Source: a virus
Length of the DNA stretch: 40,116 nucleotides
Direction: 5' to 3' (one strand)
IMG/VR virus record: IMGVR_UViG_3300032132_000754
Span: 1-40,116 of that record
The notes beneath the pieces are model-generated. The model searched no databases and had not been told where the DNA came from. It saw only the letters and a program-made list of their open reading frames with translations. The position numbers were made by a program, and so were the translations under genes. Numbering within the stretch: the stretch's first letter is position 1; each line of letters begins with the position of its first letter. Below, piece after piece: positions 14,411 to 36,629 of this stretch.

Positions 14411-16516
14411 CTAAAATTCGCAAGATCCCCCGGCGCAAGCAACAGTCTCTCTAAGAGATGTGTTATCGGTGGTTTCTTCGAATGTTGTCCAATCTATTTT
14501 TTGAAAGCTATTAACTAAATTGTTCCATTTTTTAATATCTTCGTCTGTAACAATTTGTTCGTTAGGAGCCTGTTCATAGATTTTATCGCCAGATTTTGGC
14601 AACAAAGCAATGCCAGAGAAAATATGTCTATTGTCGTAGATGTACTTTACAACATCATCCCATTCATGTTCAGCCACGGAAACAGTATTACTAACATTAT
14701 GTGTTAATCCTGGGCTAGAATTTGGATCTGCAGTACCAGGAACCACCCAGTTTTCATATGTCTTTCTAACAATTTTCAAAAGATCCAAAGCGTTAAGATC
14801 GTCTTTGATAATGGCCTGGTCAGAAACTTCAATACAGAAAGTGATGACTTCATCACCAACTCCCCACACAGATTTTTCGACCGCTTGCGGGTTATGTAAT
14901 TTGAAAAAATGCAATGGCATCTGAACAACGTTTTGTTGCATTCGTCGGAAATAACGACGAGCGTGATGCGGGTGAATGCCAGAACTAGTGCCAAAAATCA
15001 ACGATGTACTACCCGCAGGCTTAGTACAAGTGACCCTGGCTGCAGCTTCAATGCCAATTTGTTCAGCATAATGGCGATTTACTTCAACGGCGTACTCTGC
15101 CATCTCTCGTTGTGTATCTTGGTTTAATAATAGATCGGGGTTTTCCATCCACCCAGTGACAGAAACGCCTAACAACCGCTCTCTACGAATGATCCGACGC
15201 GATACGTCGGTAAGATAATGGAAATAACTGAATCCCGCTTGTAATGTTCCAATAATGGTAGCTGCTTTAACTGCATTGCGGAAGTCTTCCTTAGAAAAGA
15301 TGGCTCCGCCATTTATCTCTGTAAGATTGCAGACCTGCCAACCCGATTCATTAGTAAGAGGGTCGACAGGATTTAAACCAATTTCGACACAAGGATTATA
15401 ACCATAATTCAAATCGTCTAAAAAGACAAATCCGGGTTCGCCATATTTGCGAGAATTAGAAATTATATCTTGGAATTGTGGCAAAGAACATTGGTCGCGT
15501 AGCAGTGCAACGCTGTTATTGCTACGCGCTCTCCAAGGCATGATGTTTTTCCAATATAGGAAAACATCATCACCTTTGGTGGGTTCTTCTGTCTTGCTAC
15601 CAGTACGCTTTAGATCCCAAGCAACAACAGCTCCCTCACCATAATCAACCAGCCAAGTGTCGTCTTTACGCTTATTAGAAAGAACTTTTACGTTCTGAGC
15701 AGAGAATGTCTTGGCAGCCATCATCTCTTCGTCGTCATGCGAGAAGATTGAAATTGTAGCTGATCGACGAATGCCGCCTGATAACACTGCATCAGCAGCC
15801 ATCATAATAATGTCGTAAACTTGAATTGGACGAAGCTTGGATTGTCCAGCTTCGACAGCTTCACGCAATGCACGCTTGATTCGTTTTAGTGCTGTTCTTA
15901 GAGGAGCAGCCCCAGGGGCGCGACCTCCACTGGTTTTCAACCACGATCCCTTACGGCGGATCTTTGTAAAATCGAAGAATACTTCGCGGCCCGAATTTGG
16001 TGTGCCAACTAGATAAGTCGACATTAGAACGTCTAATGAATCAGCCCATCCTTCAATTGTGTCACCAACAGTGTAAGTGAACACTTCTTTTTCATCTGGG
16101 CTTTTGTGTTTAATAAGTTTTGGCAATTTTGCCACATGCTGCTTTTGTACGCTAAATCCGACACCTACCCCGGATAACAACATCCATAGCGCTTCGCTAA
16201 AAAATCGAGGACGATCCGCGTGAGTATACGCGCAGTTATACATGCGCGCGTCATTCTGCAGGATGGCTTCTCCGCCAAATTGCATTGACCTCATAGAAGG
16301 AAGGACTTTTTTGTCCCTTACTTGCTCGAACGCCCAACGAATGTCTTCGTCAATGCCACGAGTTCCATATCTCTGAAGATGCATGTCTCGGACGCGGTCA
16401 ATGGCCTCGTCCCAGGTCTCTCGTCTTTTCTTTTTCTGGTCATATCGTGAGTATTTGGTGATGAAAATATATTCGCTAATAGCGTCAAGTTGATTAGATG
16501 GCAATAGTTTACCCAT
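14411..16516 (-). CDS. Class II (adenosylcobalamin-dependent) ribonucleotide reductase, monomeric type
   Basis: 701 residues, close to the Lactobacillus leichmannii RTPR length of 739. Reduces ribonucleotides, probably triphosphates, to deoxyribonucleotides with a B12-derived radical, independent of oxygen. Conserved points: Cys95 in MYNCAY and Cys396 in WQVCNL (the likely disulfide pair), NPCVEIG with Asn374, thiyl Cys376 and Glu378, SGGIRRSATISIFS (246-259), TKPAGSTSLIFGTSSGIHPH, and the C-terminal shuttle pair Cys694-Cys699 in CAGGSC. All catalytic residues that I can place are intact. No small radical-generating subunit gene lies nearby, as expected for class II. GAGGAAA precedes the ATG. 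It is enclosed by virion and DNA-metabolism genes, so it is probably transcribed along with them. Confidence 0.9.
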   Translation of the reverse strand: MGKLLPSNQLDAISEYIFITKYSRYDQKKKRRETWDEAIDRVRDMHLQRYGTRGIDEDIRWAFEQVRDKKVLPSMRSMQFGGEAILQNDARMYNCAYTHADRPRFFSEALWMLLSGVGVGFSVQKQHVAKLPKLIKHKSPDEKEVFTYTVGDTIEGWADSLDVLMSTYLVGTPNSGREVFFDFTKIRRKGSWLKTSGGRAPGAAPLRTALKRIKRALREAVEAGQSKLRPIQVYDIIMMAADAVLSGGIRRSATISIFSHDDEEMMAAKTFSAQNVKVLSNKRKDDTWLVDYGEGAVVAWDLKRTGSKTEEPTKGDDVFLYWKNIMPWRARSNNSVALLRDQCSLPQFQDIISNSRKYGEPGFVFLDDLNYGYNPCVEIGLNPVDPLTNESGWQVCNLTEINGGAIFSKEDFRNAVKAATIIGTLQAGFSYFHYLTDVSRRIIRRERLLGVSVTGWMENPDLLLNQDTQREMAEYAVEVNRHYAEQIGIEAAARVTCTKPAGSTSLIFGTSSGIHPHHARRYFRRMQQNVVQMPLHFFKLHNPQAVEKSVWGVGDEVITFCIEVSDQAIIKDDLNALDLLKIVRKTYENWVVPGTADPNSSPGLTHNVSNTVSVAEHEWDDVVKYIYDNRHIFSGIALLPKSGDKIYEQAPNEQIVTDEDIKKWNNLVNSFQKIDWTTFEETTDNTSLRETVACAGGSCEF

Positions 16517-17226: not shown

Positions 17227-17484
17227 ATGAGCGAGCAAGAGTTAGACCGACCAACTGACGAATTACAAGAAGGTCCGAGTGACGAATTTGAAGAAGTCAG
17301 ATCCAAAATTGAAGAATTCCTTAATGACGATAGAGTTAAGATCGCCACAGTAGTTTTCTCGATGGGGGACAATGAGAGCCCGCATGTTCTCAGAAAAGGG
17401 CACTTTTACGACAACGCAGCTCTGTTAAATACAACGCTAGATGCATATCGTGCTAAAGCGGCGGTCGAACTAGGTATTAATTAA
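17227..17484 (+). CDS. Small acidic protein on the plus strand, unknown function
   Basis: 85 residues; first half very acidic (MSEQELDRPTDELQEGPSDE), second half with FYDNAALLNTTLDAYRAKAA, a likely helix. One of only two plus-strand genes here. GAGG lies 5 bases before the ATG, so the gene is likely real. It diverges from the 221-residue gene across 23 bases and ends by overlapping the baseplate gene tail to tail: the palindrome TTAATTAA (17477-17484) supplies both stop codons. Plus-strand location suggests expression at another time than the late block. Small acidic phage proteins often bind or inhibit host factors, but nothing specific is visible. Confidence 0.65.
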   Translation: MSEQELDRPTDELQEGPSDEFEEVRSKIEEFLNDDRVKIATVVFSMGDNESPHVLRKGHFYDNAALLNTTLDAYRAKAAVELGIN

Positions 17485-19471: not shown

Positions 19472-20206
19472 TTATCTCACCAACTCCGAAACTTTAAGAA
19501 CCAATTTGTGAATGTCAGCGACTTCTTGTGCCGTAACATTGCGTTCAGTGATAAGATCTGCTAATTTGTTATTAAGATCTACGTCATTTCCAGAAAGTTT
19601 TTGGAAAATTGGGTCATCCGACGTCGCACCATCTGGTAAACCAAGAATAGTTTGAACGGCTCTTAATGCTTTGTTATTTTCATTTATTGTTTTTTGTGTT
19701 TCTCTAATTTCGTTATCAAAATCTTTAAGCTCATTCTGTTTCTGAGCGAACTCTGCTTCCAATTCTTTTTGTCGTACCGCAGATTGCTCTTCCAAACTTT
19801 CAATTTCTTCCTGAGTCAGCCCCAAGTTTTCTAGATTCAACATATTGGTATTATGTTGGATTTCGATATCGTCAGGAGATCTGACATTAACTAGATCTTC
19901 TGTCGGAATGCCAACCTCGAAATCCAAGATCTCGCCAACTTCAAATGTTTTGGCGTTTGAAGCACCAATTAGGTTTCTACTGCTTTGCACCAAACTAAAA
20001 ATCAATTCGCCAAATTGTTCACGGCGATCTTTTTCACTATGGACTTCGTCTGGGGCTGTAGCAAGTTCTTCTGCGATCGGAAGCTGTAAAACAGTGATGT
20101 TAGCCCGTGGCGGATCTTGAGTACTAATAGTATAAGTCACATTGCCAGAGCTATTCTCTGTAGGAAGTATGCCTTTATACAATCCTGTTGGGGCTGTGAT
20201 GATCAT
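19472..20206 (-). CDS. Predicted baseplate-associated coiled-coil protein, unknown
   Basis: 244 residues, no family recognised. Residues 1-125 look beta-rich (MIITAPTGLYKGILPTENSS, and a TFEVGEILDFEVGIP segment that looks like a short domain defining a property or value). Residues 130-190 form a strong coiled coil (EEIESLEEQSAVRQKELEAE, continuing through FAQKQNEL), and the C-terminus is a second helical segment. Position between spike and gp25 suggests a baseplate component. There is no ribosome site: the 12-base gap consists of CAAATATACGTT, so it depends on coupling to the spike gene or on an unusual leader. Confidence 0.65.
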   Translation of the reverse strand: MIITAPTGLYKGILPTENSSGNVTYTISTQDPPRANITVLQLPIAEELATAPDEVHSEKDRREQFGELIFSLVQSSRNLIGASNAKTFEVGEILDFEVGIPTEDLVNVRSPDDIEIQHNTNMLNLENLGLTQEEIESLEEQSAVRQKELEAEFAQKQNELKDFDNEIRETQKTINENNKALRAVQTILGLPDGATSDDPIFQKLSGNDVDLNNKLADLITERNVTAQEVADIHKLVLKVSELVR

Positions 20207-20218: not shown

Positions 20219-22837
20219 TTACGCGTTAGGGAAGAGCGGCGGTTGTGTCAATTCATCCTCACCAATTTCGAAGACTTCAATATAACCCTCAAATGGGATA
20301 TCCTGATTAAATGCCAACACTTTATCGTTCCCCGGAACGTCTTCTAGCACTACAGGATCAGGTAATGCTCTAATTCTAAGAATAAGCGAAAGATCGCCAT
20401 AACGTTGTTGCGATAACATGGCTTGATCTTTGCCACGAGCATAATCCAAGGTTTTAGAAAGATGAATCTCTTTAGCTTCCTGACCTGGAACAGTGTTAGG
20501 GGTATTCAAATGATTTACAATTGATGCAAGAGTCAACCCAGATTCACGAATCTCATCCGTAAACTTGTTAGATAGTCCATACCATAGAACTCCATCTCCG
20601 CCGACTGCTTCAGCGATCGGATCTGGCACTGGGTCCGGTGTTGGGACAGGATTTGATCCTGGCTCGGTTGGAACATTTGGTGATGTTGGTGGGAAATCTG
20701 GTGGCACGGGCGCTCCTGGGCCTGAAGTCGGCAATCCGCCGCCACCGCCGGATCCAGCTCCACCGCCACCGCCGCCGCCGGAAGGACCTCCAAAGACAGA
20801 GGGTGGCACAGGACCCTTAGCTGGTTTTTGAGGATCACAACCACGCTCTTTGTCGAAGTCTTCTGGCTTCTTACGTGCGATCATCTTCTTCTCGAATTTA
20901 CATGGGCTCGCGCTACGTGGGTCAGGAGCCGATTTGGTAGGACCTGGTGTAAAACAAATGCCATCGTGTTTGCCGGTCATATTGAGACATTGGATTTTCT
21001 TATCGGTTCCAATCCCAACTTTGTCGATTACGTGCTGCGTTCCATCAGTATTGAAGGCGACCTTCTTGGCTTTAAAGCCAATTTCGCCCTTTGGTGCCTC
21101 AAAACAGATATTACCTTCATCAGACTTGATATGGATATCTTTCTTGGAGTGGATAATGATCTTGCCTTTTTCGTTTCGTAGCATAATGGCATCGTCATTA
21201 TCATCAAAAACGATAAACAATTCTCCGGTCTTATTACGAATTAGTAACCACTGATCGACAATGGACATCCATACGGCACGATTTTCACTATCTCTAGATT
21301 CTGTCCATTGACCACATGGAGCCTTCTTACCACGAGCCTCGAATCCAGCACCATCAGGCGTCTTCAAACGCACATAATCGTTTTGTTTATCCAATTTTAG
21401 GTGGCAAGTGTTAGATTCTGGATCGTTGCTAATACCTGTTTTACTGATATGCCGAGGCCGAGTCCTTGTCTGCTCTGGGCTCATTTCCGTATGCAATTCA
21501 TCAGATTGCGAAGTACACAAAATGATGTGTTGCCAACGATCGCTAATCTCAAAACATTGTTCTTTTGGAGTAGCAAACATTATATGATCAAGTTCTGGCT
21601 TATCAACAAATTGCATTTGATAACCCTTTCTTGATCTCATCATAATCCCGTTTCCGTGAGGCGTTTTGCTTTCTCCGGACGTTGGGCTAGAACCGCGATC
21701 GTCCAAGAATAACTGATTGCCGTGACGAGTAATAAGCCGGATCATTCTGGAGTCATCTCCGATTTGATCTTCCTTATCGTGCTCTACTCCAAATTCTGAA
21801 CTGTTAAGTTTTTTATAGAAATTATCAGCGACAGGATCGAAACCCTTGTCGAAAAGTTCTAATAGGTGGCCGCCCTTAGAACGCAGTTTTACCCAACGCT
21901 CGTCTCTTCCTTTAGAATCACCAATTGTTTTTTGTCCTGCGTATTCTCCGGAACGAGATTTATCCCATCCAACATCACGCATTTCAATCATATGGCCTAG
22001 ACGAGTACGCCATTCCATACGACGTTGATCACGATCTTTTTCTTTTTGCTCGTTGAAAGCCTTTAACAGATATTTATAACGATCAACTTCGTAGCCTTGG
22101 TCTTGCTCGAAATCTCCTTCAAATTCTTCTTTCCATTTATATCCTTGGTCACCAAAAATCGACGTGTGTCCATATTTTGTACCCATGGCAATATACTTAA
22201 GATCGGGATCGTTTTCGACTGGTTTAGCAACATCAGCCTTAAATTTCCCTTTGCTAACAGCATCTGTTCCTAATGGAATTGGTTTTTCGTCGTGCGATTT
22301 AGGGAAAAAGCCATGAGCATTAAATAACAAGAAGTGTCCATAACGATCTGTAAATCCCATGCTCATAGGACGACCATCTTTAGGAAGATATTTCTTCAAG
22401 TGGTCATCGGGCGCTGAAGCTGGCTCGCCATCTTCGGTTACCGCAAGAGGACTCTTGATGTGATTAGACCACAACGGGTATGAACGACGTCTAGTTGGAT
22501 CACCAGCAGCACAATAAATCGGAACGTATGGATGATTTTTCTCATAACAAATCATCACAACGTCATCGATGGCCGCGTTGGCAAAAGACCCGGCATTAAT
22601 TCCGCCGCTCCACGGGGCAGGGATAGCCCATGGTAGTCTTTCTTTTTTAGTATCGATGTTGTGTAATTCTGGGATTCGAACCCTGCAGCGTCTAATATTT
22701 AGAGGGTCGTTTGTCTCTACAACAATGCCTCTATACCAACCGGAAAAACGATGGTGCAAGTCGGCGCTGCGACGATCGCCAAATCGTGCAAACAGGACAT
22801 CGAGGTTATCTTCATTAACGCTAGGGAAATAATCCAT
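20219..22837 (-). CDS. Baseplate central spike, gp5/VgrG-type, with C-terminal ADP-ribosyltransferase/KptA-like domain
   Basis: 872 residues. Residues about 30-120 are an OB-fold of the gp5/VgrG type (WYRGIVVETNDPLNIRRCRV, then RIPELH and LPWAIPAPWSGG), the domain that sits on the hub. Residues 130-640 are beta-rich repeats with recurring gly-his and lys-gly turns (RLGHMIEMRD, KGGHLLELFD, RHGNQLFLDD, RKGYQMQFVD), consistent with the needle. No lysozyme domain as in T4 gp5 is seen. A Gly/Pro-rich linker spans about 665-745. The last 123 residues (750-872) read LWYGLS...IRESGL...IHLSKTLDYA...LILRIRAL...DIPFEGYIEVFEI, the layout of ADP-ribosyltransferase or RNA 2'-phosphotransferase (KptA/Tpt1) folds. 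The domain call is inferred by pattern. Confidence 0.75.
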   Translation of the reverse strand: MDYFPSVNEDNLDVLFARFGDRRSADLHHRFSGWYRGIVVETNDPLNIRRCRVRIPELHNIDTKKERLPWAIPAPWSGGINAGSFANAAIDDVVMICYEKNHPYVPIYCAAGDPTRRRSYPLWSNHIKSPLAVTEDGEPASAPDDHLKKYLPKDGRPMSMGFTDRYGHFLLFNAHGFFPKSHDEKPIPLGTDAVSKGKFKADVAKPVENDPDLKYIAMGTKYGHTSIFGDQGYKWKEEFEGDFEQDQGYEVDRYKYLLKAFNEQKEKDRDQRRMEWRTRLGHMIEMRDVGWDKSRSGEYAGQKTIGDSKGRDERWVKLRSKGGHLLELFDKGFDPVADNFYKKLNSSEFGVEHDKEDQIGDDSRMIRLITRHGNQLFLDDRGSSPTSGESKTPHGNGIMMRSRKGYQMQFVDKPELDHIMFATPKEQCFEISDRWQHIILCTSQSDELHTEMSPEQTRTRPRHISKTGISNDPESNTCHLKLDKQNDYVRLKTPDGAGFEARGKKAPCGQWTESRDSENRAVWMSIVDQWLLIRNKTGELFIVFDDNDDAIMLRNEKGKIIIHSKKDIHIKSDEGNICFEAPKGEIGFKAKKVAFNTDGTQHVIDKVGIGTDKKIQCLNMTGKHDGICFTPGPTKSAPDPRSASPCKFEKKMIARKKPEDFDKERGCDPQKPAKGPVPPSVFGGPSGGGGGGGAGSGGGGGLPTSGPGAPVPPDFPPTSPNVPTEPGSNPVPTPDPVPDPIAEAVGGDGVLWYGLSNKFTDEIRESGLTLASIVNHLNTPNTVPGQEAKEIHLSKTLDYARGKDQAMLSQQRYGDLSLILRIRALPDPVVLEDVPGNDKVLAFNQDIPFEGYIEVFEIGEDELTQPPLFPNA

Positions 22838-32578: not shown

Positions 32579-33187
32579 TTAACGAGGAATTAATCCACCG
32601 ACACGTCTAGCACCACCGACAGAACGAGTATTCCCATTTCCACCCCTAGATGGTTGAGGAGAGAAAAATTCAACTTCTGCAAAATCATAAGAGAATGTAA
32701 CAGTTAAAATTTTAACTTCTGAGCTTGTATAACTCATTTCACCATGATTAATCAACTTTGGATATGCGCCTTTAAGACGATATTCTTGGACTTTACCACC
32801 ATCACCAGCCAGCAATCGGAATTTTGGATCGCCTTTGTATCCAGATGGGACCTTAATACCTTCTTCTGGAGTCCAAATGGCGTCTTGCCATTTATTAAAT
32901 AAATCGAAAAGGCCGTGGACATCGTAAAATTTTACAACAACGTCTTGCCAATCTGCACGTTTGGCAATCTTATAATAACTATTGCCACCCTTGATCTTTT
33001 TTTCTTCGAAAGACAAAGATGGCAATTGGATAGACTGCGCGTACAATCTAAGTTTTTCTGTTGTACTAGTGCCACCAACAGCGGTAGGAATCCCTAGACT
33101 AGAAATGATCCAGCGATGAGCCCTATGAAATTCGACTGTGTTTCTAGGTTGATTAGGCTGAGAACCTCCGATATTAAAACCTGGCAT
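32579..33187 (-). CDS. Second tail tube-like protein (gp19 paralogue)
   Basis: 202 residues. Clearly related to the neighbour at 33199-33738: both begin MPGF, share an EF.R.HRW(R/I).SS stretch near residue 20-32, a S.(K/S)FEE motif, and a closing YSSSEIQQITVSL / YTSSEVKILTVTF segment. T4-type tube proteins form the inner hexameric rings through which DNA passes. Here the C-terminus carries an extra Gly/Arg tail (SRGGNGNTRSVGGARRVGG). Possible roles: tube terminal ring, a tube initiator, or a second tube subunit. AGG lies before the start, which follows the first paralogue by 11 bases. Confidence 0.75.
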   Translation of the reverse strand: MPGFNIGGSQPNQPRNTVEFHRAHRWIISSLGIPTAVGGTSTTEKLRLYAQSIQLPSLSFEEKKIKGGNSYYKIAKRADWQDVVVKFYDVHGLFDLFNKWQDAIWTPEEGIKVPSGYKGDPKFRLLAGDGGKVQEYRLKGAYPKLINHGEMSYTSSEVKILTVTFSYDFAEVEFFSPQPSRGGNGNTRSVGGARRVGGLIPR

Positions 33188-33198
33188 GTCGGCCTATC

Positions 33199-33738
33199 TT
33201 AAGCGCGCTTGGCTCGATCGAATTTCAGGCTTACCGTAATTTGTTGAATTTCCGAGCTACTATAATCAAGATCATTCCAATTAGAACTAATTGGCCACGC
33301 ACCAAACAAAGTCCAAGTTTCGTCAGGTTCACCAACATTACTAGTACATTCGATTGTGACATTAAGTTTATACGCACTTGGCAAATTGACATGGGCCTTT
33401 TCACTTAGTCCAACAACGCCATTCAAAATCCACTTATATAGAATCTCGCTTGTGTCTTTAACATTATCGCCTTTTACGGTGTCATAGAACGAAAGCTCAA
33501 TTGGATCCCATTTGTTTTTGCCAGCAAAGTAGGCTTCTTCCTGATCGTGGTGTACGACAGCTTCTTCAAACTTAAAACTTGGGCGTTGGGCTTTGGATAA
33601 ATATAGCCAATCCCTCTTGAGAAGACCCGTTTTGTCGTCCGATGACAGACGCCAACGGTGCTTACGACGAAATTCGGCTTTATTATTCTTGGTGAGTTCT
33701 TTTCCACCAGAAGCTTTATCAATTGAAAAACCAGGCAT
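33199..33738 (-). CDS. gp19: Tail tube protein, gp19-like
   Basis: 179 residues (T4 gp19 is 163). Position directly after the sheath gene, length and strand pattern fit the main tube subunit. Conserved-looking parts: KAEFRRKHRWRLSSDDKTGL, a WDPIELSFYD beta hairpin, the LFGAWPISSNW segment and C-terminal DLDYSSSEIQQITVSLKFDR, the last resembling the ends of many gp19 proteins. Ribosome site GAGG, 8 bases before the ATG. An AGATATAG element lies just before it. The paralogue follows immediately downstream. Confidence 0.82.
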   Translation of the reverse strand: MPGFSIDKASGGKELTKNNKAEFRRKHRWRLSSDDKTGLLKRDWLYLSKAQRPSFKFEEAVVHHDQEEAYFAGKNKWDPIELSFYDTVKGDNVKDTSEILYKWILNGVVGLSEKAHVNLPSAYKLNVTIECTSNVGEPDETWTLFGAWPISSNWNDLDYSSSEIQQITVSLKFDRAKRA

Positions 33739-33764: not shown

Positions 33765-36629
33765 TTAGAATTCCGCAGCAACATCAATACCAGCAGCAGC
33801 CAAGACTTCTTCAGCGGCGAAGCTTTGGTCAGTCCGTAGAATGACGAGGTTTAATACGATAAATTCAACAGCTCTTGTTGGTTTAATAAGAACACTAACC
33901 CACAGCTCATTTCGGTCACGACGAATTGGAGTATTATTTCGCTCATCGACAATAACATCGAAAGCAGTAAGACCACGTCTAGCTCGAACATCCTCAAGGG
34001 TTGGAACAATAGAATTTCTAACTTGGCTCCACAAAACACTATCATTAGGTTCGAAGAGGAAATTTCTCAACAGAGGAATTAGAGCTTTCTTCAAAGCAAT
34101 CAATAACATTCTGACGTTTACACGATCCAAAGCAGAGTCTTTACGCTGCAATGTACGCTGACCGAAAATTGTTACTCCGTCTTGTGGGAAGTTAACAATT
34201 GGGTTAACTGCGTTGTTGAAACCGTATAATAGGTCTCGCTCACCCTGAGTTGGGTTGAATTCGAGATTTAGGACAGTGTTCAAACGTCCACGGTTTAGGC
34301 CAGCCGGAGCGAACCAAAGCTCTGCTTCTCTGGCAGTTCTTGCGTAAACAGCAGAGACGTGGCCAGATGGTGGAATGAAGATCGTACCACCATTAAATTG
34401 GTCGAATACCTCAACCCATGACCAGTATAGTGCGCCATATGAGCTATTAAGTGAGACTTGGAGATCGCTAAAGAGCATTCCATTGTGCCAATCGACAACT
34501 TGTTGCGGACGTAGACCGAATGGTGGGTCAACTAAGTACATGCAGTCGCCACGGCCTTCGCACATCGCGAGAGATTGGGCGATAACTGCTCCAGAGCTAA
34601 ATCCGGGTGTGGATAGTAATGTGATGTCGAAAACTTCTGGGTTCTGGAATGCGAAGATTCCAGAACTTCTAGCAGCGTTACCAATGACAGCTTCATCCAA
34701 TTTAGAACTGAACATGGCGTCAAGAGGAATTCCGTTAGCTAGACCAGCGAACGCACGATGATTTACCTCGCCAGGTTGACGAACAGCGTAGTTAGATGCA
34801 TCGTTAGGATCGTTCTCAAGGAATACTGGACGTTCTTCCCAATTTAAGTAAGTATTGCCGTTTACACCACCGATTGTGCTACCAGGATTGACAACATTAC
34901 CAATATATCGTGCATCGGTTGGGTTGAAACTAGTGTCATCGACGCGAGCGTCAGGAATTTCTAGTCCTGCTGGGTCGAATACACTGACCTGATAACGGCC
35001 AGGTTGGTTATTGAAGTTAGTAACAGAAACTGTGTGTCCTGCAAGCCACGTTCCTGGAGATGGAGCTACTAAGTAGCCAACCAACGATGCATAATAAGCA
35101 ACGTCCAGAGCACATTGAGCACTTACCGGATCAGTTTCGCATGACAATGGAACCGATGGCGTGATAATGCCAGGTTCTGGCAATTCAACGCGTGGGTCGA
35201 AGAATCCACGGAATGCACGAGTGTGGACTTGGAAGTTCACTTCTTCAGCAAAACGCAAAGTCTTAATGTGGCTGAAATCAGCGAGCATTCGTAATTGGCC
35301 AAACTGATGATCTTCAGAAGCGATGACGAAAACTCGACGATCGTCATCAGTTACTCTAATGGCAAGTGACTCGTAATACCTTGAACCAAGAGCAACACCG
35401 CCAAGGTGCAGAGAGTTAGCTACAGACACCGGAGTTGCACTAGAGCTGATAGAAACAGTCGCTGCTAGATTAGTGGTTTGTTCGTCCTCGATTAAATCGA
35501 GGAAAACACGGTTGTTGTTTGAATTGATGTTAAACGGACCAGTGTCTGCGCCAACTAACCAACTACGTGGAATATCGATGGCCCATTTTTGTAATCCGAC
35601 TTCTAGAGCGAAAGCTTCAGTTCCGGTGATCTGAATGCGATCACCAGCGCCCCTGGTGCGAATGAAGAGATTAACGCCATCATATCCTGCAATAAAATCG
35701 ACTGCAGTGCCAACTAATGTATTGAAATCAGCGACAAAGTCGTCAGGATCATCGTATGTGGCAGCTGTTAAAGTAAAGGAAGCCGGAACACTAGGTGCGC
35801 CTTCGACTTCTAGGGAGAATGTTAAGTTATCTGGTCGTACTTGGAAAGTAAAGGTGTCGTCTCTCTCGATTGGAGAAGAGCCTGTTATTTCTACTCGCAG
35901 CACCAATCCAGTATCGTCATCTCCAGTACCAACCGCAATTGGCAAAGAGAAGGTTACACTACCGCTGGTTCCGCCTAGTACTAGTTGACCTGATGCAATA
36001 ATGGCCCCGTCACTGTTACGATAGAGATCATATCCAGCGCCGTCGAGGACACCGCTTGTTGGGTTAGATGTGATTAGAAGGTTGAAACTATCATCTGTTG
36101 GTCCGGTGTAAACATCAGAAAGGTCTGACCCAACGAAAGCCAAAGTTGCGATAGTTGGCCCGTCAGTCGTAGAGACGTCAAGGTCATTATAGTCGATATT
36201 GAATACTGCGGCAGCATGAAAATCGAGTGGAGCTTCTACGGTAGGAACTTGGATGTTGAGACGACCGAAATCGATTCCTTGGAAGACGGATACACGTCCC
36301 CAACCTTGGACGCGAGCGCCGGTATCGTCGATACAAATCTCTGCTAGTTCAGGCGCTTGGCCATCGTCACATGTGACGCCTACACGGAGTACCCACGCGG
36401 CGTTACCTTCTTCGAGGAAGGCTAATACAGCATATCCCAAGTTAGCTTCTGGAAGCGGCTCACCGAAAACTTCAACGTACTGCTCAGGGTTGGTGATCAG
36501 ACGAGGTTCATTTAGAGGGCCTTTTTGGGCCGCTCCGATGAATGCCGGGATTAAACCGGAAAAGTTAGCGGGGAGGACGCTAAGATCAATTTCTCTTGGA
36601 AATACTCCTGGTGAAAGGAAAACAGGCAT
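33765..36629 (-). CDS. gp18: Tail sheath protein, gp18-like, enlarged
   Basis: 954 residues (T4 gp18 is 659; most sheaths are 350-700). Contractile sleeve around the tube. N-terminus has the sheath signature FLSPGVFPREIDLSVLPANF, then FIGAAQKGPLNEPRLITN and a YVEVFGEP segment. C-terminus has the matching conserved block: VRNSIVPTLEDVRARRGLTA, FDVIVDERNNTPIRRDRNEL, then VSVLIKPTRAVEFIVLNLVI. Between them, about residues 120-480, lies a large beta-rich insertion (SGSVTFSLPIAVGTGDDDTG, DNLTFSLEVEGAPS) that should project from the sheath surface. Ribosome site AGGGG before the ATG; AGATATAG element 23 bases upstream. No catalytic motif seen in the insert. Confidence 0.92.
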   Translation of the reverse strand: MPVFLSPGVFPREIDLSVLPANFSGLIPAFIGAAQKGPLNEPRLITNPEQYVEVFGEPLPEANLGYAVLAFLEEGNAAWVLRVGVTCDDGQAPELAEICIDDTGARVQGWGRVSVFQGIDFGRLNIQVPTVEAPLDFHAAAVFNIDYNDLDVSTTDGPTIATLAFVGSDLSDVYTGPTDDSFNLLITSNPTSGVLDGAGYDLYRNSDGAIIASGQLVLGGTSGSVTFSLPIAVGTGDDDTGLVLRVEITGSSPIERDDTFTFQVRPDNLTFSLEVEGAPSVPASFTLTAATYDDPDDFVADFNTLVGTAVDFIAGYDGVNLFIRTRGAGDRIQITGTEAFALEVGLQKWAIDIPRSWLVGADTGPFNINSNNNRVFLDLIEDEQTTNLAATVSISSSATPVSVANSLHLGGVALGSRYYESLAIRVTDDDRRVFVIASEDHQFGQLRMLADFSHIKTLRFAEEVNFQVHTRAFRGFFDPRVELPEPGIITPSVPLSCETDPVSAQCALDVAYYASLVGYLVAPSPGTWLAGHTVSVTNFNNQPGRYQVSVFDPAGLEIPDARVDDTSFNPTDARYIGNVVNPGSTIGGVNGNTYLNWEERPVFLENDPNDASNYAVRQPGEVNHRAFAGLANGIPLDAMFSSKLDEAVIGNAARSSGIFAFQNPEVFDITLLSTPGFSSGAVIAQSLAMCEGRGDCMYLVDPPFGLRPQQVVDWHNGMLFSDLQVSLNSSYGALYWSWVEVFDQFNGGTIFIPPSGHVSAVYARTAREAELWFAPAGLNRGRLNTVLNLEFNPTQGERDLLYGFNNAVNPIVNFPQDGVTIFGQRTLQRKDSALDRVNVRMLLIALKKALIPLLRNFLFEPNDSVLWSQVRNSIVPTLEDVRARRGLTAFDVIVDERNNTPIRRDRNELWVSVLIKPTRAVEFIVLNLVILRTDQSFAAEEVLAAAGIDVAAEF

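What the first reader, a model, noticed from the sequence alone, without database searches (positions are those of the whole stretch)
20222..20590. Central spike ending in an ADP-ribosyltransferase/KptA-like domain
The last 123 residues of the gp5/VgrG-type spike follow a Gly/Pro linker and read like a separate enzyme fold: LWYGLS at the position of the YHGTS entry loop, IRESGL, IHLSKTLDYA, then LILRIRAL, and DIPFEGYIEVFEI at the place of the third motif. The order matches ADP-ribosyltransferases and RNA 2'-phosphotransferases. In T6SS, VgrG spikes with C-terminal enzymes deliver effectors; a phage spike with such a domain could modify a host target at the moment of entry. The usual His is Tyr here, so activity is open.
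Basis: partly seen in the sequence, partly recalled or inferred. Interest (0 to 1): 0.82.

Follow-up and report, generated by a model that had tools for sequence, protein, structure and literature searches.

The report
Phage spike tipped with ART-like domain
The needle protein of this large, poorly known phage ends in a flexibly tethered domain that resembles the NAD-binding half of the RNA-repair enzyme KptA, but most residues that hold NAD are changed, so it is probably a repurposed ADP-ribosyltransferase-fold domain carried on the needle rather than a normal enzyme.

Summary
In detail: the 872-aa gp5-like spike (20219-22837, -) has an OB domain, a long middle part, a Gly/Pro linker and a ~125-aa C-terminal domain (CTD), with every quoted motif in place. 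One relative (IMG/VR contig, L001) has the same spike. Its CTD is 77% identical with synonymous sites saturated, so the CTD is real and constrained.

No family library, PDB sequence search or usable structure model identifies it; both AlphaFold runs failed (pLDDT 40-41). A profile of KptA NAD lobes does single it out. With gap-tolerant settings both CTDs outscore 20,000 of 20,000 shuffles and every other piece of this phage; on a wider set only true ART-fold proteins (DarT) score higher. I judge the ART fold likely (about 0.75), not proven.

Ordinary NAD chemistry looks unlikely. HGT is YGL, the Arg before VHLS is lost, and the RNA lobe is absent; one NAD-phosphate Arg (R812) remains. Best reading: a diverged, probably non-canonical ART-fold module carried on the spike. 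Known jumbo-phage spikes carry a lysozyme-like domain after the shaft, and "evolved VgrGs" carry effectors. I found no published phage spike with an ART-fold domain; a survey of viral ARTs describes head, portal and MuF fusions.

The parts
20219..22837 (-). gp5-like central spike protein, 872 aa
   Evidence: single open frame; Phage_base_V at residues 35-107; PHROG 430
22517..22735 (-). OB domain (Phage_base_V), residues 35-107
   Evidence: 24.1 bits (cut-off 23.8)
20978..22477 (-). long middle part, presumed beta-helical shaft, about residues 121-620
   Evidence: inferred from position and from XacN1/RAS14 spikes in which OB is followed by DUF2345; no family hit of its own
20603..20812 (-). 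Gly/Pro-rich linker, about residues 676-745
   Evidence: sequence itself; poorly conserved and indel-rich against L001
20222..20608 (-). C-terminal ART-fold-like domain, residues 744-872
   Evidence: conserved in L001
20570..20584 (-). WYGLS (752-756), aligned with YHGTA/S of KptA; His becomes Tyr, Thr becomes Leu
   Evidence: identical in L001
20456..20470 (-). EIHLS (790-794), aligned with VHLS of KptA; the KptA tetrad Arg before it is not kept
20396..20404 (-). RYG (812-814), aligned with R-H-G of KptA, whose Arg (Arg139 of CthTpt1) holds the NAD phosphates
   Evidence: identical in L001
20366..20386 (-). LILRIRA (818-824), aligned with the VILTVKA strand of KptA
20267..20302 (-). DIPFEGYIEVFE (846-857), candidate third motif and last strand; DISFEEYIEIFE in L001
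   Evidence: its alignment to KptA is uncertain
19472..20206 (-). 244-aa protein directly downstream, in the gene position where SP-15-like phages have PAAR; no family, not PAAR
   Evidence: the same order in L001

Best explanation
The spike ends in an ADP-ribosyltransferase-fold module related to the NAD lobe of KptA/Tpt1, hung on a flexible Gly/Pro tether after the shaft. gp5-type spikes are trimers, so three copies would travel with the spike when the tail contracts. In this lineage the module occupies the slot that other large phages fill with a lysozyme-like domain. Because most residues that hold NAD in KptA are replaced and the RNA lobe is absent, it most likely does not carry out KptA chemistry. 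It most likely works as a diverged ART-fold module, binding a partner or ligand at the tip or in the host, or using a changed active site. Shown: the domain, its conservation in a second phage, its KptA-lobe-like profile and the missing residues. Inferred: the fold, the trimer, the delivery, and the loss or change of catalysis.
For: KptA C-lobe profile (20 sequences) with gap-tolerant settings: CTD 9.1 bits and L001 CTD 7.7 bits, above 10,000 of 10,000 shuffles each and above all 1,579 other pieces of this phage; with default gap costs 1 and 5 of 10,000 shuffles do as well. On 4,084 further real pieces, the only ones above both CTDs belong to DarT ORFs, true ART-fold proteins. MAFFT, unguided, aligned L..G, GL, HLS, A, R.G and the strand after it with KptA at 21-27% identity. 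hhalign of the two-row profile: P 0.0013, rank 2 of 358 including nulls. Purifying selection. Active-site roles in KptA: His101/Thr103 hold the adenosine ribose, Arg121/139/140 the phosphates (PMC6333775); of these only Arg139 has an Arg counterpart here (R812). Precedent for an enzyme after the shaft: SLT_3 in the XacN1 and RAS14 spikes.
Against: No hit at any usual threshold in Pfam, PHROGs, NCBIfam or the PDB sequences. AlphaFold gave pLDDT 40.3 (two rows) and 41.2 (with KptA rows), both unusable; the Foldseek lists from them are not significant. HH-suite probability is only 18%. The DUF952 and DarT profiles do not recognise the CTD. Only two CTD sequences exist, so loss of catalysis rests on an alignment.
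Confidence: 0.52

Rival explanations
1. The domain is a catalytically active, fast-evolving ART that uses NAD in the host and modifies a host protein or nucleic acid at entry, the spike counterpart of T4 Alt.
For: R812 is kept; the last motif FE[GE]YIE offers acidic residues, and L001 has FEEYIE. ARTs are enriched in myoviruses and many are virion-packaged (PMC9503650). T6SS VgrG1 of Aeromonas is reported to have ART activity (PMC5471719). Two KptAs fetched here have Arg or Gln instead of the His (L037, L038), so that His alone is not decisive.
Against: Both ribose-holding residues (His and Thr) are replaced and the phosphate-cage Arg before VHLS is lost. The position of a catalytic Glu is not conserved between the two phages (G851 against E). 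NAD is a cytosolic cofactor and a spike domain may stop in the envelope (general knowledge).
Confidence: 0.2
2. It is not an ART at all but a lineage-specific tip, docking or envelope-binding domain of another fold, and the motifs are a chance likeness.
For: All standard searches are empty, structure models have no confidence, and only one relative exists in the collections searched.
Against: Profile score above 20,000 shuffles and all other pieces of the phage, alongside genuine ART-fold proteins; five motif regions in the right order in both relatives.
Confidence: 0.23
3. It is a working KptA/Tpt1 RNA 2'-phosphotransferase fused to the spike.
For: The nearest profile is KptA; large phages carry standalone KptA.
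Against: The RNA lobe with Arg-His-Arg of the essential tetrad is missing; the fourth tetrad Arg, His and Thr are replaced. The record has no KptA by family search.
Confidence: 0.01

Closest known systems
KptA/Tpt1 RNA 2'-phosphotransferase (Pfam PF01885), NAD lobe
   Same: Order and spacing of L-x-x-G, GL, HLS, R-x-G and the following strand; best-scoring profile of those tried.
   Different: HGT is YGL, the tetrad Arg before VHLS is lost, there is no RNA lobe, and two insertions of about 15 and 6 residues; it sits on a phage spike.
Evolved VgrG spikes of type VI secretion (VgrG-1, VgrG-3 of V. cholerae; VgrG1 of A. hydrophila, reported ART)
   Same: Spike protein with an extra C-terminal domain carried on the puncturing device.
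   Different: Here it is a T4-like phage spike; the domain lacks the usual ART catalytic residues and no activity is known.
Jumbo-phage spikes of Xanthomonas phage XacN1 and Stenotrophomonas phage RAS14
   Same: OB domain, shaft, then a C-terminal domain.
   Different: Their C-terminal domain is lysozyme-like (SLT_3), not ART-like.
T4 Alt and ART-PolyVal/MuF-fused phage ARTs
   Same: ART-superfamily proteins carried in the virion.
   Different: Those ride in the head with the DNA and keep R-S-E or H-Y-D triads (PMC5512222, PMC9503650); this one is on the spike and keeps neither.
PARP13-type inactive ARTs
   Same: Members of the ART fold lacking ADP-ribosylation activity (PMC10789625); His-to-Tyr in the first motif (PARP13 detail from memory).
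   Different: No sequence relation tested; PARP13 is a vertebrate antiviral protein.

Membership tests
gp5/VgrG-type central spike | OB domain (Phage_base_V) near the N-terminus | tested here: met
   residues 35-107, 24.1 bits, just over the curated cut-off
gp5/VgrG-type central spike | Gene position between tape measure and gp25/baseplate J genes of a contractile tail | tested here: met
   tape measure upstream, GPW_gp25 and Baseplate_J downstream; T4 portal, sheath and gp15 also in the window
gp5/VgrG-type central spike | Trimeric beta-helical shaft | not testable with these tools
   no gp5 repeat family hit in the window spike; inferred from related architecture
ADP-ribosyltransferase fold (clan level) | Three-dimensional ART fold | tested here: inconclusive
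   AlphaFold pLDDT 40-41, no significant Foldseek hit
ADP-ribosyltransferase fold (clan level) | Sequence-profile similarity to an ART family above chance | tested here: met
   KptA lobe profile; not met with DarT or DUF952 profiles
ADP-ribosyltransferase fold (clan level) | H-Y-E or R-S-E catalytic triad | tested here: not met
   first position is Tyr in both relatives, second His, third not conserved
KptA/Tpt1 (PF01885) | Hit to the family model | tested here: not met
   no Pfam hit up to E 10; PF01885 finds nothing in the record
KptA/Tpt1 (PF01885) | HGT motif holding the adenosine ribose | tested here: not met
   YGL in both relatives
KptA/Tpt1 (PF01885) | Arg-His-Arg-Arg tetrad across RNA lobe and NAD lobe | tested here: not met
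   no RNA lobe; QEAKEIHLS / QEAMEIHLS instead of R-x-x-VHLS
KptA/Tpt1 (PF01885) | Arg of the R-H/R-R pair before the next strand (NAD phosphates) | tested here: met
   R812 in QQRYGD, aligned by HMMER and MAFFT

The most novel reading that the evidence does not exclude
A T4-like phage carries an ADP-ribosyltransferase-fold effector fused to the tip of its injection spike, with a rebuilt active site, so that a host target is modified at the moment of puncture: the phage equivalent of an evolved VgrG and a delivery route for phage ARTs other than packaging in the head.
Probability: 0.2. Interest if true: 0.85.

Novelty: new variant of a known kind. Interest (0 to 1): 0.5.

Why it matters
Phage ADP-ribosyltransferases are known as head-packaged, injected or early-expressed enzymes; a survey of over 21,000 viral proteomes describes fusions to head, portal and MuF proteins (PMC9503650), and I found no report of one on the spike. 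If confirmed, phages and type VI secretion systems would share the strategy of hanging an ART-fold domain on the spike. It would also raise a testable question: does a spike domain reach the cytosol, where NAD is, or has an old enzyme fold become a binding or structural tip domain?

Tried and rejected
Homologue searches: three protein or alignment scans of viral contigs returned only contig IMGVR_UViG_3300033147_000313 and the whole-spike single-protein scan found none. Four degenerate DNA-pattern scans gave the same contig plus two chance hits, L022 and L085, whose reading frames are unrelated. Genome contigs and plasmids: none. Phage records: only chance hits; the Brevundimonas, Serratia, Kuttervirus and MT835536 hits are antisense, out-of-frame or span gene ends. 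PDB profile search: only flavivirus envelope proteins at E 1.4 or worse, chance.

Structure: AlphaFold with two rows and again with four KptA lobes added, both near pLDDT 40. For the second model Foldseek ranked Tpt1, Tpt1 and DarT1 first at E 1.8-2.3 and probability 0.10 or less. That model was biased by its alignment and is not counted as evidence.

Rejected: KptA activity (residues missing); separate translation of the domain (no in-frame ATG just upstream); a PAAR tip gene in the record (none by PF05488); other NAD/ADP-ribose genes such as KptA, Macro or PARP in the record. DUF952 and DarT as the nearer family (no signal). ART-PolyVal gave too few sequences to build a profile.

Full report
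What the window is. The window is bases 1-40116 of a 185,177-base virus record. It holds a T4-like contractile-tail module: T4-type portal, sheath, gp15-like sheath stabiliser, T4 baseplate protein, tube-like proteins, tape measure, gp25 and baseplate J. The closest named phages are far away; for example the baseplate J protein matches at under 25% identity.

The observation. The spike gene 20219-22837 (-) encodes 872 residues. Phage_base_V is found at residues 35-107. Residues about 676-745 are a Gly- then Pro-rich linker, and the last 123-129 residues form the domain in question. An IMG/VR contig, L001, has the same gene order and a spike 79% identical over its length; the domain is 77% identical, the linker 62% with gaps. 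Synonymous sites are saturated while dN in the domain is 0.17, so the domain is a real, selected part of the protein.

Does it resemble an ART? Standard searches say nothing: no Pfam, PHROG or NCBIfam match even at E 10, and no relevant PDB sequence. KptA sequences were taken from E. coli, from genome contigs, from a family search and from PDB alignments; DUF952 and DarT sequences. The profile of the KptA NAD lobe scores the domain and its relative above all 20,000 composition-matched shuffles and above all 1,579 other pieces of the phage when gaps are cheap; with default gap costs 1 and 5 of 10,000 shuffles do as well. On 4,084 real pieces from other loci, the pieces above the two domains with cheap gaps all belong to DarT ORFs, which are true ART-fold proteins, and other DarT and DUF952 pieces follow close behind; with default gaps, two overlapping non-ART pieces also score slightly above the domain. 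The test thus finds remote ART relatives and places the two spike domains among them. DUF952 and DarT profiles do not find the domain. HH-suite gives a weak result in the same direction (P 0.0013, probability 18%). The gap setting is post hoc, and the domain was chosen for its motifs, so I take this as good but not conclusive support for the fold, about 0.75.

Structure prediction did not decide it. Two sequences gave pLDDT 40.3. Adding four KptA lobes gave 41.2, with secondary structure in the ART order (strand WYGL, helix, helix, strand HLS, helix, strand LILRI, last strand IEVFE) but no confidence. The Foldseek lists are not significant.

What is missing and what is kept. In the Tpt1 structure (PMC6333775) His101 and Thr103 of HGT bind the adenosine 2'-OH, Arg121, Arg139 and Arg140 cage the two phosphates, and Arg18, His19, Arg68 and Arg121 bind the RNA phosphates. 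In the spike domain HGT is YGL. No Arg lies at the Arg121 place (QEAKEIHLS, and QEAMEIHLS in L001). The RNA lobe is absent. Arg139 corresponds to R812 of QQRYGD, kept in both phages. Some genuine KptAs here have Arg or Gln at the His position (L037, L038), so the His alone is not decisive, but His and Thr together are lost here. The last motif is FEGYIE in the window and FEEYIE in L001; a Glu at the position of the catalytic Glu of H-Y-E enzymes would be present only in L001 (inference from alignment). I conclude that canonical NAD chemistry is unlikely in the window's protein but not excluded.

How it most likely works. XacN1 and RAS14 spikes have an OB domain, a DUF2345 shaft and then a lysozyme-like SLT_3 domain, so the C-terminal slot of phage spikes can hold an enzyme. 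In T6SS, evolved VgrGs carry effector or adaptor domains in the same place, including an ART reported for A. hydrophila VgrG1 and a purely binding extension in EAEC VgrG1 (PMC5471719). Here an ART-fold module fills the slot on a flexible tether. Three copies would ride on the trimer and enter the envelope, perhaps the cytosol, on contraction. The replaced residues favour binding or a changed chemistry over standard ADP-ribosylation. Steps from trimer to delivery and function are inferred.

Known and new. The large survey of viral NAD/ADP-ribose systems reports ARTs in heads, fused to MuF and portal proteins, and does not use the words spike or baseplate. Paper searches for spike-borne phage ARTs gave none, within a library limited to open-licence papers. 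I file it as a new variant of a known kind (spike with a C-terminal extra domain), with membership in KptA tested and not met.

Noticed in passing
G000:C1 about 56216-76545 (L014:16217-16943, L015:452-16546): 42 tRNA genes on the - strand of the same virus record, covering most amino acids, one with an odd four-base anticodon call (gatg, L015:6788-6860).
   Followed up: no
window 33765-36629: Sheath-type protein of 954 aa; the sheath domains match only residues 724-929, leaving a very long N-terminal part without a family.
   Followed up: no
window 32579-33187 and 33199-33738: Two neighbouring proteins both weakly match the T4 gp19 tail tube family, below its cut-off.
   Followed up: no
window 19472-20206: 244-aa coiled-coil-like protein in the gene position where related baseplate operons have the PAAR tip; PF05488 finds no PAAR in the record.
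   Followed up: partly
L012:3914-6694 and L013:3911-6883: Spikes of phages XacN1 and RAS14, deposited as hypothetical proteins, read as OB, DUF2345, then SLT_3 lysozyme-like domain.
   Followed up: yes
L037 and L038: Genomic KptA homologues with FRGT and FQGT instead of HGT but the rest of the family pattern intact.
   Followed up: no
window 14411-16516: Ribonucleotide reductase (701 aa) inside the structural gene cluster, nearest in phages to Rhizobium phage RHph_I1_18 (43%) and Microcystis phage Mel-JY01 (39%).
   Followed up: no
window 17227-17484 against L001 8129-8793: Between baseplate J and the next gene the window has a small + strand ORF (85 aa), whereas L001 has an unrelated Pro-Lys-Gln repeat ORF there.
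   Followed up: no
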